Part shown: piece after piece, positions 1 through 6,237 of the stretch | Layout: the number at the start of each line of letters is the position of its first letter | How positions within the stretch are numbered: the first letter of the stretch is position 1 | DNA from: Nanoarchaeota archaeon | GTDB taxonomy: Archaea; EX4484-52; LFW-46 | Length of the DNA: 6,294 nt | NCBI GenBank assembly: GCA_018897155.1 | Contig: JAHILE010000002.1 | Location: 1-6,294, forward strand | Reading direction: 5' to 3' | Notes under the pieces: model-generated | Databases searched by the model: none | What the model saw: the letters and a program-made list of their open reading frames with translations, nothing else | Told to the model about the DNA's origin: nothing | Position numbers and translations under genes: made by a program

Positions 1-90
1 ACAAACGTTATCGGGTTGAAAAGCTTGCCGCAAGAGCGGCATGATTTGAGGACTCCAAACCTCAAAATCATCTCGCCAATCGCTCGAAGC

Positions 91-115
91 TTTTGAGAAC
101 GTTCAGTTCTCAAAA
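91..115. repeat. Perfect 10-base hairpin with 5-base loop
   Basis: TTTTGAGAAC (91-100) pairs exactly with GTTCTCAAAA (106-115) around the loop GTTCA. Its 5' arm overlaps the 3' arm of the longer-range 19-26/87-94 repeat, so the two pairings exclude each other. This could be two alternative states or chance overlap. Confidence 0.85.
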
Positions 116-140
116 TCCCAGCCGCAGCAGAGCTGCGGGG

Positions 141-161
141 TTTGCAACCGAAGGTTGTAAA
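141..161. repeat. 9-base hairpin with GAA triloop (one G-U pair)
   Basis: TTTGCAACC (141-149) pairs with GGTTGTAAA (153-161) around the loop GAA, with one G-T (G-U in RNA) pair at 144/158. The same C-GAA-G apex occurs in the hairpins at 233-249 and 255-269 on unrelated stems. The G-U pair keeps a helix in RNA from the plus strand, whereas from the minus strand it would be an A-C mismatch; this mildly favours plus-strand RNA. Confidence 0.8.
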
Positions 162-232
162 GCTTTTCGACCGTAGTCGAAATGATATTGCGCAAATTTT
201 TTCGCTTGCGCGAACCGGCAATTTCTATCTTT

Positions 233-269
233 TCTATGCGAAGCATAGACAGCTTGATACGAAGTATCA
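233..269. repeat. Two adjacent perfect hairpins, each with a C-GAA-G apex
   Basis: TCTATGC/GCATAGA (233-239/243-249) and TGATAC/GTATCA (255-260/264-269) are separated by five bases, and each encloses the triloop GAA. The apex of the first is exactly GCGAAGC, known from structural work as an exceptionally stable DNA mini-hairpin. Unrelated stems sharing the same loop suggest selection on shape and not on primary sequence. Confidence 0.85.
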
Positions 270-272
270 TGA

Positions 273-323
273 TTTTCAGTTTGGAACGCAGCAAGCTGCG
301 AGGTATTAAACCCAAACTGAAAA
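273..323. repeat. Compound hairpin: 12-base outer stem enclosing a 6-base inner hairpin
   Basis: The outer arms TTTTCAGTTTGG (273-284) and its exact complement (312-323) pair over 12 bases. Inside, CGCAGC (287-292) pairs with GCTGCG (295-300). This is the strongest structure of the array and the one nearest to the operon's 3' end, 55 bases beyond the last stop codon. It could terminate or protect the operon transcript, or be extruded as a cruciform. Confidence 0.85.
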
Positions 324-329
324 ATAAAC
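319..329 (-). terminator. Possible T-rich transcription terminator of the surface-protein operon
   Basis: Reading the minus strand past the last stop codon, the first marked T-rich run is GTTTATTTTTC, about 50 bases downstream, running straight into the 12-base hairpin arm. Archaeal termination often needs only a T-run. The run is interrupted and short, so the call is tentative. Confidence 0.3.
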
Positions 330-1394: not shown

Positions 1395-1400
1395 ATCACC
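1395..1400 (-). promoter_or_regulatory. Shine-Dalgarno GGTGAT overlapping the upstream stop codon
   Basis: Reading the minus strand, GGTGAT spans the last Trp codon and the TGA stop of the 1192-residue gene. It sits three bases before the ATG of the 337-residue gene. GGTGAT is complementary to the ATCACC of the conserved archaeal 16S rRNA 3' end, and that register gives normal spacing. It supports this ATG as the start and suggests that ribosomes finishing the large gene reinitiate on the next. Confidence 0.7.
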
Positions 1401-4400
1401 ATGTTACTTCTTTTAGCTTGAGCTGAATAGTTGGATCGCCCAACAGATAATAAAAACCGTGAGATGACTCTTCTGTAAATAGTTCGCCAGTAGTTATTGT
1501 GTCATGTTCCGTTCCAGTTAATCTTTTTAGATGCTTGCTATTAGATCCGCAGTCGAGATAAGCAACGCCGGAAGACCCCCAATATCCGACAGCGCCTTTT
1601 CTTATCATACTGGGCCCAAATGTTGCAGAACTCCCCTGCCAGTAGTTGTTTGTCAGGCAAGCCTGAGCGTCAGCAAATGGCAAATCAAGCCACGGAATTT
1701 CGAAGAAAGAAAGAGTGTTGGCCCACGAGCCCGGACCGCCGTGATCTGCATAAGTGATATATCGTTTATTGGTATAGTTGGAAACAAGCGGGCTTGTATC
1801 TATAGTACAGTTCGGATATCCTGCATTTTCGACGAAACATATTGAGTTGTAGCCGGATGCAGACGTTTTATCGTTTATATATTGTACATCAGATTCATCA
1901 CAGCTGAAACTATGCCCGACAGAGATTATATTGTAATTTGTTCCGTATAAGTCTTGAATTATCTGATCAAAAAATAGCGATTTAGCTATGTGGGATGATG
2001 CATCTGCAACAGTGATGCCATATATTCTGCCAACATACAGCAGGCTATTAAGATTATTAAGAGATGCGTATTTCCAATCTACCGGCCATCTGAATTGCCA
2101 AATACCACTACATCTGTTGTAAAGCGAATCAGGAATTGCATTTGGAGCAGCAACAACTGTGAGATAAGTTGGCATGAGATTGAGCGAGTTAATGAAATTG
2201 GCAGAATCGGCATCTGCAGTATTAAAATTATTTGTCAGTGCCGCACTGGCGATGCATCCTGCGTTTGTGCCGGAATCAGGCACTTCGGTATACATTATTG
2301 CTTCTTCTTTAGCAGCGGCTAAAAACGGAGCGGCTAATGACATTTTGCTAAAAATTGTGTTGATAAAAGAACTTTTCTGCGGGAAAAACGAATAGCTCAT
2401 TTTTATGCTAAGGTCTTTTGGATTCAAGAAAATCAATTTATCACTGCCGGTTTCTGTCAAATACCATTTTTGTAAATCTTCAAGAGTGTATTTGACATTG
2501 CAGCCTGAATTGGCGTCTATATAGCTTTGAGTTGTTGCATCGAGATTTTCGACAACGTATATTGTCTTTCCGTTAATCAAGGATTTATACGTTGGGAGAT
2601 TTGCTGAATTGACAAAAATAATCGGGCTGTTCTTATTTGATGCAAAAACTGCCGCCATGAGGCCCGCCTTGTAATTATTGTAATCGACTACAACCAGTGA
2701 ATTGAATGATGACCAGTATGAAAAGTAGTCCGATGATTTTATATTGACTATTGATGCCGCTTTCAGCCCGGCGCCAACAGGCTTTGCCGCAACAAGCAAA
2801 TTATTGAGATTCGCAGGAATTGTGCCTATTGTGGTTGCATGATTCGGTCCGTATAATTGCATAAAATGGATTGTGGAATCTGCATCGAATGCTGTCGCAG
2901 TTTCATGATGGTATATCAGGGCAGGGTATTTACGTATCGTGGCGCCTTCCTTCCATATCGCAAGCGGAACAAGGCTCAATGCGTCTTGCCAGTTGCTGTC
3001 AGAAATCATGAACGTTTCTTTGCTTGCGTATTTTGCATTGTTCTTGAAATTATTCACTGCGCATTCTGCGTTGACATTGATAGTTACAGTCGCGCTGGTT
3101 GTGGCACTTGCGCTGTCAGTAATTTTTAAAGTAATCGTGTGGGCATTGATAGAGAGATCATTTGTTGAAAAATAATCTTTACGCAAGCCTGAAGGCGTAA
3201 TATCACCGTCTTTGTTTGAGGTCCATTTATACGTATATGGCGGGATGCCTCCAGTAACAGAACTATTGAATTTGATAAGACTGTCTATTTTTTTGAATGT
3301 TGCGCCATTAATTGGTGATATTATAGTAGCAGCCAACGGTGCCGGGGGCGTTATAATGATGTTAACTTCGTCTTTAGCAATTTGCTTGGCGTTATCATTC
3401 ACACTCAGGGTGATTTTATGGCTGCCAACGGACAAGTTATTTCTTGCGAAGTCAATGTCGTAAGGGCTTGTAAATATTTCGCCGTCTTTGTCAGATGTCC
3501 ATGTGAATTTAAATGGCCATACACCTCCGCTGAAGGTTTCATTAAATGATATATAATTCCCGCGCGCTACTGTCGCACCGTTCAGGGGGCTGTCAATAGT
3601 GATTGTAAGTGGCGGAGGCGGAGTTATCTGAATGTGGCGCGTTTTGACAATTGTTTTTGGCGTGCCGCTGGAGTCTGTGATTGTCAGAGTAATTGTGTGA
3701 AGGCCTTCAGTTAAGTCATCTTTGCTGAATGCATACGCAGTATTGAGGATACCGTCTAAATCAGACACCCATAAATAGGCGTATGGCGGCGTTCCGCCCG
3801 TAATCCACGGACTGAACCATAGCATATTTCCATAAGAGGCTGTTGTTCCTTCAGTTGGATTAATCTGTGCGGTCATTTCAACAATATTGATTTTAGTTGC
3901 TGATGTTGCAATATTTCCGATATTGTCAGTTACTTTAAGTGTTATTGTGTGAGTCCCAACAGTCCACGAACTGGAGTCAATTGAAGGGCCCTGAACTGTT
4001 GAAAAATCCCCTTCAAGATCGGAATTCCAGACAAATGTGTATGGAGGTGTTCCTCCCGCGACATCAGACCATAAGTTTATGATTTCGCCTTTAGCAAATT
4101 CATCGATCCACCTATCGATATTTGCAGTTAATGTGCCTGCGGGTTTAACTTCGATAATTATATTGTCTGAAGCTTTTACACCCTTAATGTCGGTGGCAGT
4201 AACTGTGATAGTGTGCTTGTTTGTGGTGAGCGTATTCATTCCAAAATGCATATTGGTTGATAAACTGCCGTCTTTATCTGATTTCCATTCAAAGCTGTAA
4301 GCGGGAAACGTATAATCCGGTTGCCCTCCTAACGCAAAACTGAGGAACCTAAGCCAATCTCCATTAGCATAGATATCTCCATCATATGGTTGAATAATTG

Positions 4401-4974
4401 TTGCGGTTAATGGTGATGATGGAGATACGCATACGCCAGAATTGCATGTTTTTGGTGCGGTGCATGTTCCGCAGTTTTTTGATGCTCCGCACACAGTCTG
4501 CGTTCCGCAGTTATAGCCTAATGATGCGCATGTGTCTGTGCAACCTGACGGCGCGCATACGCCAGAATTGCATGTTTTTGGTGCGGTGCATGTTCCGCAG
4601 TTTTTTGATGCTCCGCACACAGTCTGCGTTCCGCAGTTATAGCCTAATGATGCGCATGTGTCTGTGCACGATAGAGTGCACGCTGAACCAGTCCATGTGT
4701 AGCCGGAAGCGCACTTGTAACAGCTCTCACCAGCTCCGCAGCAAATTCCTGACGATGCGACGGAATTGGATGGAGCGCTTGTCTTGCAGCCCGGGCTCGT
4801 GGAACATGTTTTTGTGCACGGGCTTTCTGGATCGCTGGTGCTTGAACTGGACAACGCTCCAAATTTATTGCTCATCAAGGAATATGAAAAAAGTAGTACC
4901 AGAGAAAGTAACAGAACTGCAATTCCGACGTTCGTAAGCAATTCTGTTTCAATGCCTTTTCGTACACTTGCCAT
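1396..4974 (-). CDS. Giant membrane-anchored surface protein: Cys-rich head, five PKD/Ig-like domains, C-terminal gingipain-like (C25) protease domain
   Basis: This 1192-residue protein is predicted to be extracellular. Residues 1-40 form a class III-like signal/anchor (VRKG then a hydrophobic stretch at 14-33). Residues 53-182 carry 24 cysteines, including two identical 38-residue eight-cysteine stretches at 103-140 and 145-182. Residues about 187-636 hold five Ig/PKD-like domains with the recurrent pattern GGxPPYxxxWxSDxDG...LxxGxHTITLxVTD. From about 640 the sequence resembles archaeal peptidase C25 (caspase-fold, clan CD) proteins: FDADS (697-701), a VGRIYG stretch near 981, DHGGPGSW with H1078, QACLTNN with C1106, then GAVGYWGSS and a terminal LLGDPTIQL. 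H1078 and C1106 would be the catalytic dyad. Such enzymes cleave proteins at the cell surface; the substrate here is unknown. The ATG is the first start after an in-frame stop, 42 bases past RuBisCO. No strong Shine-Dalgarno is seen. The protease assignment is by motif only. Confidence 0.9.
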   Translation of the reverse strand: MASVRKGIETELLTNVGIAVLLLSLVLLFSYSLMSNKFGALSSSSTSDPESPCTKTCSTSPGCKTSAPSNSVASSGICCGAGESCYKCASGYTWTGSACTLSCTDTCASLGYNCGTQTVCGASKNCGTCTAPKTCNSGVCAPSGCTDTCASLGYNCGTQTVCGASKNCGTCTAPKTCNSGVCVSPSSPLTATIIQPYDGDIYANGDWLRFLSFALGGQPDYTFPAYSFEWKSDKDGSLSTNMHFGMNTLTTNKHTITVTATDIKGVKASDNIIIEVKPAGTLTANIDRWIDEFAKGEIINLWSDVAGGTPPYTFVWNSDLEGDFSTVQGPSIDSSSWTVGTHTITLKVTDNIGNIATSATKINIVEMTAQINPTEGTTASYGNMLWFSPWITGGTPPYAYLWVSDLDGILNTAYAFSKDDLTEGLHTITLTITDSSGTPKTIVKTRHIQITPPPPLTITIDSPLNGATVARGNYISFNETFSGGVWPFKFTWTSDKDGEIFTSPYDIDFARNNLSVGSHKITLSVNDNAKQIAKDEVNIIITPPAPLAATIISPINGATFKKIDSLIKFNSSVTGGIPPYTYKWTSNKDGDITPSGLRKDYFSTNDLSINAHTITLKITDSASATTSATVTINVNAECAVNNFKNNAKYASKETFMISDSNWQDALSLVPLAIWKEGATIRKYPALIYHHETATAFDADSTIHFMQLYGPNHATTIGTIPANLNNLLVAAKPVGAGLKAASIVNIKSSDYFSYWSSFNSLVVVDYNNYKAGLMAAVFASNKNSPIIFVNSANLPTYKSLINGKTIYVVENLDATTQSYIDANSGCNVKYTLEDLQKWYLTETGSDKLIFLNPKDLSIKMSYSFFPQKSSFINTIFSKMSLAAPFLAAAKEEAIMYTEVPDSGTNAGCIASAALTNNFNTADADSANFINSLNLMPTYLTVVAAPNAIPDSLYNRCSGIWQFRWPVDWKYASLNNLNSLLYVGRIYGITVADASSHIAKSLFFDQIIQDLYGTNYNIISVGHSFSCDESDVQYINDKTSASGYNSICFVENAGYPNCTIDTSPLVSNYTNKRYITYADHGGPGSWANTLSFFEIPWLDLPFADAQACLTNNYWQGSSATFGPSMIRKGAVGYWGSSGVAYLDCGSNSKHLKRLTGTEHDTITTGELFTEESSHGFYYLLGDPTIQLKLKEVTW
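1399..3057 (-). other. C-terminal archaeal gingipain-like (peptidase C25) region
   Basis: Residues about 640-1192 form one large globular region. The first part (SDSNWQDALSLVPLA, then PALIYHH and FDADSTIHFM) is reminiscent of cell-wall-binding repeat 2-like modules that often precede archaeal C25 domains. Then come NPKDLS, a stretch ending in APFLAAAKEEAIMYTE, and a VGRIYGITVADASSHIAKSLFFDQI block typical of these proteins. The putative catalytic His is H1078 (codon 1741-1743) in YADHGG. The putative catalytic Cys is C1106 (codon 1657-1659) in ACLTNN, 28 residues on; gingipain R has 33. An alternative His/Cys pair, H1021 and C1025 in GHSFSC, seems less likely because it lacks the surrounding caspase-fold pattern. 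Confidence 0.65.
3067..4416 (-). repeat. Five tandem PKD/Ig-like domains (protein-level repeats)
   Basis: Residues about 187-278, 280-366, 367-451, 454-543 and 546-636 of the 1192-residue protein are five diverged copies of a roughly 90-residue beta-sandwich module. Each has a PPYTF.W-like strand after a GG turn, an SDxDG or SNKDG motif, and a final HTITLxxTD strand. The last two begin after Pro-rich linkers (TPPPPLT, TPPAPLA). The copies are well diverged in DNA, unlike the 115-base repeat next to them. They most likely form a rigid stalk that holds the C-terminal catalytic domain away from the membrane. Confidence 0.85.
4428..4668 (-). repeat. Perfect 115-base direct repeat (126-base period) encoding a duplicated eight-cysteine unit
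   Basis: Positions 4428-4542 and 4554-4668 are identical over 115 bases, separated by 11 bases, giving a period of 126 bases or exactly 42 codons. The reading frame is therefore kept. Each copy encodes a unit starting CTDTCASLGYNCG and ending CNSGVC, with eight cysteines likely paired in disulfides. Only the linkers differ (APSG after the first unit, VSPSS running into the PKD stalk after the second). Identity at synonymous positions points to a very recent duplication or to gene conversion. Similar CGxCxxxxxCxxGxC units occur in secreted proteins of other microbes. Confidence 0.95.
4855..4974 (-). other. N-terminal class III-like signal/anchor segment of the surface protein
   Basis: The first 40 residues begin with MASVRKG, then IETELLTN, then an uninterrupted hydrophobic stretch (residues 14-33), then a Ser-rich linker. 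A basic pair plus Gly before a polar, Glu-containing stretch and a hydrophobic helix is how archaeal archaellins and type IV pilin-like proteins start; their prepilin peptidase cuts after the Gly. Here that would be G7. The Glu residues fall at +2 and +4, not the classical +5, so an uncleaved N-terminal membrane anchor is equally possible. In either case the remaining 1150 residues would be outside the cell. Confidence 0.5.
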
Positions 4975-5016: not shown

Positions 5017-6237
5017 TTATTTCCATTTCTTAATCGCATCCTTCAATTCAACATGCGTCTTGGCGTACTCTTCCAAAGTTATTTCGCGCAAGCTGGCTTC
5101 AACCGCCTGGCGCATTGCGCGCGCTCCGGCAACAGTTCCTTTTGGATGCCCATGCACGCCGCCGCCTGCCTGTATTACAACATCAATGCCGAAAATTTTA
5201 ATGATGTCGGGAATCTGAAGCGGAGAAAGCCCGCCAGATGCAACCGGAAGCGCCTTTTTAAGTTCGTCCATTTTAGAAGTCAAAGCATCGCAATTTGAAA
5301 GAACCTCCTCTTTTTCTTCAAACATCTTTCCGACAGCTGCGCCGACATGAAGCTGGTCGATTCCTGCAAGACGCGAGAATTTTGCAAGAACTTTCATCGA
5401 AATCCCATGCTTCGGGTTCTTTGTTATTGCAGCATGCCCTGCCCGGTGGCCGTGAAGAATTAATTTGAAATTTTCATTGCGCAGCGTTTGAAGTCCCGAC
5501 CAGCCCACAGTCAAAACATCAACCATAGCATATTCGCCGCCGGCATCCTGCACGAGCTGCGCGCGCCGAAGCATTTCTTTTGTCTCTGCAGTTACGTTCA
5601 CAAGATAGCATTTCTTTTCATTGGCCCGGATTTCAGCTTTGTCGCGTGCCTCAAGAGTTTTTGATAATCGTGTCTCAAATTCATTGAATTTCTGCGACGA
5701 CAGGTTTTCGTCATCTTTTACAACATCGCATCCGCCGACCCACGCATCGTAAGCGACTTTTGCATGATCTTGTGAATTCAGCCCTATTTTCGGCTTCACA
5801 ATTGTTCCGATAAGAGGCCTTTTTCTGACTGCAAGCGTTTTTCTTATCCCTTCGATTCCATAGGCAGGGCCTTTGAATGAAGAAATGAGCCCATCAGGAA
5901 ATTCAATGTCAAGAAGTTTCAGGTTTTTTACAATCTTCATGCCGAAAACATTTCCGGCAACGCTTGAAAGAATGTTCGGGATGTTTCCGCCCTCGAAAAG
6001 CTCGTCAGGATATGCGATTTTTACAACGCCGCCCTTTATCGAGAAAACCTTTGCAGACAAGCGCTCGACATATTTCTTTGAAGTAGAAATGTCAGTCCAG
6101 GTTCCGATTGATGATTCTGCGGCAACGCCTCCGGCAGCTTCTTTCATTGAAACGCCATTAGGTTCAACAAAAAATGTGCAGACGAGATCAGATTCTTTTA
6201 TTTTGTATTTTGAGTTTACGTAATCCGCATATTTCAT
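5017..6237 (-). CDS. rbcL: Form III (archaeal) ribulose-1,5-bisphosphate carboxylase large subunit
   Basis: This cytoplasmic enzyme carboxylates ribulose-1,5-bisphosphate to two 3-phosphoglycerates. In archaea with form III enzymes the substrate usually comes from AMP/nucleoside breakdown, not the Calvin cycle. All active-site residues are visible (spinach numbering in brackets): E41 (60), T46-W47 (65-66), N96 (123) in GNVFG, K148 and K150 (175, 177) in TIVKPKIGL, the carbamylated lysine K174 with D176 and E177 (201, 203, 204) in VKDDEN, H264, R265 and H268 (294, 295, 298), H297 (327), loop-6 K304 (334), S334-G-G (379-381) and G358-G359 (403-404). That argues against a RuBisCO-like form IV protein. 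By eye the closest style is the methanogen-type enzyme (GTIVKPK, HAKVAYDAWVGG); subgroup III-a versus III-c is undecided. At 406 residues it is short, and the segment after loop 6 is about 15 residues shorter than in spinach. The start matches the family N-terminus. No small subunit or AMP-pathway gene is in the window. Confidence 0.96.
   Translation of the reverse strand: MKYADYVNSKYKIKESDLVCTFFVEPNGVSMKEAAGGVAAESSIGTWTDISTSKKYVERLSAKVFSIKGGVVKIAYPDELFEGGNIPNILSSVAGNVFGMKIVKNLKLLDIEFPDGLISSFKGPAYGIEGIRKTLAVRKRPLIGTIVKPKIGLNSQDHAKVAYDAWVGGCDVVKDDENLSSQKFNEFETRLSKTLEARDKAEIRANEKKCYLVNVTAETKEMLRRAQLVQDAGGEYAMVDVLTVGWSGLQTLRNENFKLILHGHRAGHAAITKNPKHGISMKVLAKFSRLAGIDQLHVGAAVGKMFEEKEEVLSNCDALTSKMDELKKALPVASGGLSPLQIPDIIKIFGIDVVIQAGGGVHGHPKGTVAGARAMRQAVEASLREITLEEYAKTHVELKDAIKKWK

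What the first reader, a model, noticed from the sequence alone, without database searches (positions are those of the whole stretch)
19..323. A 300-base intergenic array of about ten different hairpins in a row
The sequence directly shows successive, mostly perfect inverted repeats with short loops covering most of the stretch, next to the 3' end of an operon and containing no credible gene. The stems are unrelated in sequence, so this is not a simple repeat expansion; what is repeated is the shape. It could be a multi-hairpin non-coding RNA, a very stable 3' end, or a DNA element recognised as single-stranded hairpins. I know of no named element that it matches.
Basis: seen in the sequence. 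Interest (0 to 1): 0.7.

Follow-up and report, generated by a model that had tools for sequence, protein, structure and literature searches.

The report
Mobile hairpin element built from nested modules
The row of hairpins is most of one copy of a small jumping DNA element that carries no gene of its own, related to bacterial IS200 elements, into which smaller hairpin modules have inserted; it matters because it shows step by step how such hairpin clusters are built in little-known archaea.

Summary
Positions 1-328 are the right three quarters of a ~444-bp non-coding element that continues onto contig C46. Identical left ends sit on four contigs, and ~20 relatives lie elsewhere in this genome. 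The right end (core GCAGCAAGCTGCGAGGTATTAAACCC, then a stem, then AATAAA) is the end of an IS200/IS605-type insertion sequence. In an Aenigmatarchaeota MAG, a SAR324 MAG and a Desulfobacteraceae MAG the same end bounds a Y1 transposase gene, and a decayed copy of that transposase lies in the window's own order. The core occurs in archaea and bacteria. The extra hairpins are modules: hairpin-AAGCTT-hairpin-ATGATTT (82 matches in this genome, 1 in the control). The linkers are fixed and the stems vary with compensation. In a related genus the same intergenic site is empty in one species, holds two tandem modules in another, and in a third holds one module plus an AATAAA element. So this is a transposase-less, PATE-like IS200/IS605 derivative with nested hairpin modules: a new variant of a known kind, probably moved as single-stranded DNA. 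Transposition itself was not observed, no matching transposase was found in this genome, and none is known for the module.

The parts
1..328 (+). Right ~328 bp of a ~444-bp non-autonomous element. The left 116 bp are on contig G000:C46 (reverse complement of C46:142-257), whose end overlaps the window start by 141 identical bases.
   Evidence: left-end copies on C21, C25, C26, C46
13..47 (+). Module 1: 3' arm of hairpin A (GGGTTGAAAA; its 5' arm TTTTTCAACC is on C46), linker AAGCTT 21-26, hairpin B GCCGC/GCGGC 27-40, ATGATTT 41-47
41..71 (.). Palindrome ATGATTTGAGG..CCTCAAAATCAT joining module 1 to the inverted module 2
65..115 (-). Module 2, on the minus strand: hairpin A 115-91 (TTTTGAGAAC/GTTCTCAAAA), AAGCTT 92-87, CGAGCGATTGGCGAG, ATGATTT 71-65
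117..140 (+). Inner copy of the terminal hairpin (CCCAGCCGCAGCAGAGCTGCGGGG), matching the left-end hairpin of autonomous IS200-type relatives. A shorter copy at C23:38133-38271 jumps from here straight to the right end.
141..188 (+). Module 3: TTTGCAACC-GAA-GGTTGTAAA, GCTT, TTTCGAC-CGTA-GTCGAAA, ATGATAT
190..226 (+). 3' arm of the left stem: GCGCAAATTTT and CGGCAATTTCT, complementary to AGAAATTGCC.TAAAATTTGCGC on C46, with a small hairpin between them
235..277 (+). Module 4: TATGC-GAA-GCATA, (GAC)AGCTT, GATAC-GAA-GTATC, ATGATTTTC, inserted after TTTTC (230-234), which it repeats at its own end. Relatives in the same genome read CTATCTTTTCAGTTTG with no insert.
273..323 (+). Right-end hairpin: outer stem TTTTCAGTTTGG/CCAAACTGAAAA (273-284/312-323) holding the conserved core GCAGCAAGCTGCGAGGTATTAAACCC (288-313)
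323..328 (+). AATAAA: right boundary. A(A/G)TAA or a close form also precedes the left end, as an IS200/IS605 target/cleavage site would.

Best explanation
The array is one copy of a non-autonomous (transposase-less) IS200/IS605-type mobile element of the PATE kind, enlarged by nested hairpin modules. Shown: its right end is a conserved hairpin plus AATAAA that also bounds complete IS200-type elements with a Y1 transposase gene; it is dispersed in several copies with a sharp left boundary after a TAA-type site; its interior is largely made of units hairpin A-AAGCTT-hairpin B-ATGATTT(T/C); such units insert after runs of T and recreate that run at their own 3' end, so they can stack in tandem and nest inside the larger element. 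Inferred: a TnpA of that clade supplied in trans folds the terminal hairpins on single-stranded DNA (probably the lagging-strand template), cuts at AATAA and pastes the element 3' of another AATAA ('peel and paste'); the module moves by a similar route with T4-5 as target; perfect but diverse stems are kept by selection for the folded shape and/or by template-switch correction of palindromes.
For: Dispersed copies: 35 matches of the array in its own genome. Four contigs (C21, C25, C26, C46) carry the identical left end after different flanks (..ttgaataa|..gtacataa|..gtttataa|..tttagtaa|AGAAATTGCC), and three of those contigs stop inside the repeat. The outer arms on C46 and in the window pair in the joined fold. 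The core has 94 exact-match stretches across DPANN archaea, Spirochaetaceae, Syntrophaceae, Desulfobacteraceae, Lentisphaerae and others, typically followed by (G/C)AATAAA. Complete elements LE-tnpA-core-AATAA in L053, L119 and L139; their proteins are Y1_Tnp and NF033573 IS200/IS605 transposases. A decayed tnpA 64% identical to that of L139, with left end AATAAA|..CGCAGCAAGCTGCGGGGTATTACG.., lies in G033 of the same order. Module: 82 matches against 1 control in the own genome, 85 against 0 in G001. Arm-swap test: 19/49 perfect 5-bp stems against mean 1.7, max 6; other family 22/29 against 2.2, max 8. Orthologous site: G027 empty, G033 two tandem modules, G012 one module plus an AATAAA element.
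Against: No TnpA of this clade was found in the window's own genome: its three Y1 genes have other ends and are 23-31% identical to the L053, L119 and L139 proteins over the aligned stretches, although repeated IS copies are easily lost from MAGs. No empty site was found for the window copy itself, since the neighbouring gene has no orthologue in G001. The C46-C2 join rests on a 141-bp overlap in a repeat. The outer right-end stem is not present in bacterial copies, so its compensation is seen in few lineages (7 stems of 7 bp or more out of 38, shuffles mean 0.6, max 5). The hairpin-A arm and T-run were found automatically in only part of the modules.
Confidence: 0.8

Rival explanations
1. REP/REPIN-type repeats: domesticated palindromes spread and maintained by a single-copy RAYT (TnpA-REP) rather than an insertion-sequence derivative.
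For: Many intergenic palindromes, high copy number and a Y1-family link.
Against: The transposases that share the ends lie inside complete elements bounded by both ends, and score as IS200/IS605 (NF033573), not as REP-associated (NF047646 below cut-off in one, no hit in the other two). The core carries GTAT, not the GTAG or CGTC tag of PMC3733652. The element is ~444 bp with two terminal structures.
Confidence: 0.1
2. A functional structured RNA, or an mRNA 3' end stabiliser or terminator, transcribed from the minus strand as the operon's 3' tail; the hairpins carry UUCG/UACG-type loops on that strand.
For: Fold z of -6.2 on both strands. The array lies downstream of the minus-strand operon. 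cUUCGg and cUACGg loops on the minus strand, read directly from the sequence.
Against: Copies lie beside unrelated genes and on both strands. No Rfam match. Presence or absence at an orthologous site in relatives. TTTT..AAAA arms are the reverse of an intrinsic terminator. A secondary role in transcript ends is not excluded.
Confidence: 0.07
3. The hairpins arise in place by replication slippage and template switching at palindromes, not by insertion of modules.
For: Stems are perfect while their sequences differ; modules 1 and 2 lie head to head around a palindrome.
Against: Linkers AAGCTT and ATGATTT are conserved across loci and families. Clean insertion after a T-run against an empty orthologue. 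The same insertion joint GGCGATTTTT|..ATGATTTTT|AGTC in several loci. May still explain the fast turnover of stems.
Confidence: 0.1

Closest known systems
PATEs (palindrome-associated transposable elements) of Haloquadratum walsbyi (PMC3119063)
   Same: Transposase-less archaeal elements with near-terminal palindromes like those of IS605-type transposons, no inverted terminal repeats, a short target oligonucleotide, and shortened 'terminal-only' copies from deletion between the two palindromes (compare L034, L038, L049, L132 and the C23 copy).
   Different: Different end sequences and target (AATAA). Here the interior is filled with hairpin modules joined by AAGCTT/ATGATTT, and the right end is shared between archaea and bacteria.
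IS200/IS605 family insertion sequences (Y1 HUH transposase, single-strand 'peel and paste')
   Same: Same hairpin-plus-AATAAA ends as elements that carry an IS200-type tnpA (L053, L119, L139) or tnpB (L054, L135).
   Different: The window element has no transposase gene and is decorated with extra hairpins; its mobility is inferred.
SMR-A short mobile repeats of Haloquadratum (PMC3119063)
   Same: Small non-coding elements that insert into the palindromes of PATEs without target duplication.
   Different: SMR-As are ~110 bp with inverted terminal repeats. The modules here are ~43-76 bp without such repeats, use T-runs as target, and their stems differ from copy to copy.
REP/REPIN/BIME repeats with RAYT transposases (PMC3116915, PMC3733652)
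   Same: Intergenic palindromes dispersed in the genome and tied to Y1 transposases.
   Different: No GTAG/CGTC tag, no flanking single-copy RAYT; complete IS-like elements exist with these ends.

Membership tests
IS200/IS605 family | Subterminal hairpins at both ends, no inverted terminal repeats | tested here: met
   Left stem and inner core hairpin, right-end hairpin with core
IS200/IS605 family | Same ends as elements encoding a Y1 (HUH) transposase | tested here: met
   L053, L119, L139 and decayed L145
IS200/IS605 family | Insertion 3' of a short fixed target that is also the right-end cleavage sequence, no target duplication | tested here: met
   AATAA at the right end and AATAAA/AATGAA or a close form at the left flank of many copies. 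The strongest are the Spirochaetaceae copies; some own-genome flanks are only GTAA or ATACA.
IS200/IS605 family | Own transposase gene | tested here: not met
   No credible gene in 1-377; the element is non-coding, so it can only be a derivative
IS200/IS605 family | Cleavage and joining of folded single-stranded ends by TnpA | not testable with these tools
   Needs biochemistry
PATE | Non-coding, near-terminal palindromes related to IS605-type ends, no ITR | tested here: met
PATE | Terminal-only copies formed by deletion between the two palindromes | tested here: met
   ~70-bp own copies with left end fused to right end (L034, L038) and the C23 copy; Spirochaetaceae minimal copies
PATE | Presence/absence at orthologous sites | tested here: inconclusive
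   Shown for the sister element in G012 against G027 and G033, not for the window copy
REP/REPIN (RAYT) | GTAG or CGTC tag next to the palindrome | tested here: not met
   Core reads GCAGCAAGCTGCGRGGTATTRAACCC
REP/REPIN (RAYT) | Single-copy RAYT gene flanked by the repeats | tested here: not met
   Flanks of the three own Y1 genes were inspected: none is bounded by the core, though one core copy lies ~0.5 kb from the C46 gene
Described structured RNA (Rfam) | Covariance model match | tested here: not met

The most novel reading that the evidence does not exclude
The hairpin A-AAGCTT-hairpin B-ATGATTT unit is a class of mobile hairpin of its own, recognised by shape and linkers rather than stem sequence, so that stems diversify freely while the element keeps moving into T-runs, including those of IS200-type elements, with a mobiliser not yet identified.
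Probability: 0.4. Interest if true: 0.65.

Novelty: new variant of a known kind. Interest (0 to 1): 0.5.

Why it matters
It gives a worked case of how long hairpin clusters form between genes: small single-strand-type transposons that recreate their own target stack in tandem and nest. It ties an otherwise nameless cluster in uncultured archaea to a transposon end shared by bacteria and archaea, and offers a system in which stem sequence varies while linkers stay fixed, suited to asking what Y1-type recombinases read: sequence or shape. In practice, these repeats break metagenome assemblies and can look like structured RNAs.

Tried and rejected
Rfam, gathering and permissive: nothing. Core pattern in viral contigs: none. 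The nearest own Y1 gene (C46:15909) as the mobiliser: its ends differ and the core copy lies outside it. An empty site for the window copy in G001: no orthologue of the neighbouring gene. Plain alignment of the orthologous site gave a messy picture; reading the raw sequences side by side resolved it. Literature on DPANN hairpin repeats: no hits.

Full report
WHAT IS THERE. The first ~330 bases of the window are dense in hairpins: ten inverted repeats of 5-10 bp stems plus a 12-bp outer stem, 8 of the 20 perfect stems of 6 bp or more in the whole window, and a fold far better than shuffles on both strands (z -6.2). No credible gene and no Rfam family is there.

IT IS PART OF A REPEATED ELEMENT. 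The stretch has 35 matches in its own genome. The end of contig C46 overlaps the window start by 141 identical bases and continues it. The reverse complement of C46 reads ..TTTAGTAAAGAAATTGCCTAAAATTTGCGC.., whose arms pair with GCGCAAATTTT..CGGCAATTTCT at window 190-226 in the joined fold. The same left end, identical over 137 bases, lies at the ends of C21, C25 and C26 with different flanks, each with TAA just before AGAAATTGCC. The assembly breaks there because the element is multi-copy. The whole element is ~444 bp: left stem enclosing many hairpins, a module, a right-end hairpin, AATAAA. Caveat: which left flank belongs to the window copy is not proved, since the overlap is within a repeat.

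WHAT THE ENDS BELONG TO. The right-end core GCAGCAAGCTGCGRGGTATTRAACCC is found in several families of the order and in 94 stretches of representative genomes from DPANN archaea and many bacteria, in most of them followed within about 20 bases by (G/C)AATAAA. In L053 (Desulfobacteraceae), L119 (SAR324) and L139 (Aenigmatarchaeota) it lies 26-30 bases from the start of an IS200-type tnpA, with a similar hairpin beyond the gene's other end preceded by AATAAA or AATGAA. These proteins are Y1_Tnp and IS200/IS605 transposases by Pfam and NCBIfam. In L054 and L135 the same core ends a TnpB-type element (TnpB assignment from the N-terminal sequence, not tested by HMM). Within the window's own order, G033 holds a tnpA broken by a stop, 64% identical to that of L139, with left end AATAAA|ACGAATTTTAGGTCTCGCCTATCCCAATCGCAGCAAGCTGCGGGGTATTACGGCGAGAC. 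Minimal copies AATAAA|AAATCCCCGCAGCAAGCTGCGGGGTATTAAACCCCACTGCG|AATAAA occur repeatedly in Spirochaetaceae, and short copies with left end fused to right end occur in the own genome. Such core deletions are described for PATEs in PMC3119063.

WHAT THE EXTRA HAIRPINS ARE. They obey a grammar: hairpin A, AAGCTT, hairpin B, ATGATTT(T/C). The pattern AAGCTT N8-38 ATGATTT has 82 matches in the own genome against 1 for the reversed control, 85 against 0 in the sister species, 14-49 in most genomes of family f7 (9 in one of them, G021), and 2-11 in the other families of the order; in the unrelated archaea tested it is at or only slightly above control. Stems between the fixed linkers vary in a compensatory way: swapping arms between copies leaves 1.7 perfect stems on average instead of 19 of 49 (own genome), and 2.2 instead of 22 of 29 (other family). 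Matched sites show insertion. In genus g9 one orthologous intergenic site reads CATTTTTTTATTATCGCGCCAGA in G027. In G033 it holds two tandem modules between the T-run and AATCGCGCCAGA, each ending ATGATTTTT. In G012 it holds one module with a different hairpin B plus an AATAAA element in the opposite direction. Modules also sit in the AATAAA element itself: GGCGATTTTTAGTC in L013/L081 against GGCGATTTTT[..ATGATTTTT]AGTC in L026/L109 and L126. In the window, CTATCTTTTC[43 nt ending ATGATTTTC]AGTTTGG compares with CTATCTTTTCAGTTTG in the own genome. Because a module ends with the T-run it inserts after, modules can stack in tandem, which explains arrays with ~73-76 bp period.

MECHANISM. Established for IS200/IS605 elements (background knowledge; reviewed in papers cited in PMC6006769): TnpA recognises folded single-stranded ends and joins them 3' of a short target that matches the right-end cleavage site. 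The window element has the matching anatomy, so mobilisation in trans by a TnpA of the L139/L145 clade is the best explanation. It is inferred, not shown; no such gene was found in this 96%-complete genome, whose three Y1 genes have other ends. For the module no transposase is known, and its use of the same route is a weaker inference. Compensatory stems could be kept by selection for folding or by template-switch correction; the data do not separate these.

LIMITS. The outer stem of the right end is an elaboration seen in DPANN copies only, so its covariation rests on few lineages. The hairpin-A arm and its T-run were located automatically in only part of the modules. Copy numbers are approximate because contigs break in the element.

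NOVELTY. It works like, and shares its ends with, IS200/IS605 elements, and fits the PATE definition except that presence/absence at an orthologous site was shown only for a sister element. The modular hairpin interior with fixed linkers and free stems was not found described in the papers searched, so it is rated a new variant of a known kind.

Noticed in passing
window 5017-6237 (-): Form III RuBisCO large subunit (TIGR03326, E 2e-163), in a DPANN-like archaeal genome.
   Followed up: partly
window 1396-4974 (-): 1192-aa secreted-looking protein with PKD/Big_13-like repeats and a possible cysteine-peptidase-like motif (..ADHGGPGSW..) read by eye; the gene holds a perfect 115-bp direct repeat at 4428-4542 and 4554-4668.
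   Followed up: no
L049, L057, L091, L106, L108, L122 (Spirochaetaceae MAGs): Many ~46-bp copies AATAAA|AAATCCCCGCAGCAAGCTGCGGGGTATTAAACCCCACTGCG|AATAAA: very short terminal-only elements that seem to be mobile on their own.
   Followed up: partly
L056, L058, L060, L068, L076, L085, L089 and others (Syntrophaceae/Smithella MAGs): The same core sits in a different conserved composite repeat (AATCACGGGTATGAACCCCAAAGCAAGCTTTGGAAACAGATTCCGCAGC...), suggesting another derivative family.
   Followed up: no
L054 and L135 (Nanoarchaeota MAG OS_PC_MetaG.mb.129): TnpB-like gene ending 86 bp from the same core and AATAAA: a tnpB element using the same end as tnpA-only elements.
   Followed up: no
L217, L221, L223, L224, L228, L229 (genus g9): Tandem module arrays with conserved loop words (TCTCCAATT..CACCAATAT; TATAAAGTATGACC), so the loops, not only the linkers, are constrained there.
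   Followed up: partly
L027 68-102 (G000:C23): Isolated perfect 16-bp stem with 3-nt loop (TATTCGATTAAGTTTC-TTT-GAAACTTAATCGAATA) between genes, unlike the modules.
   Followed up: no
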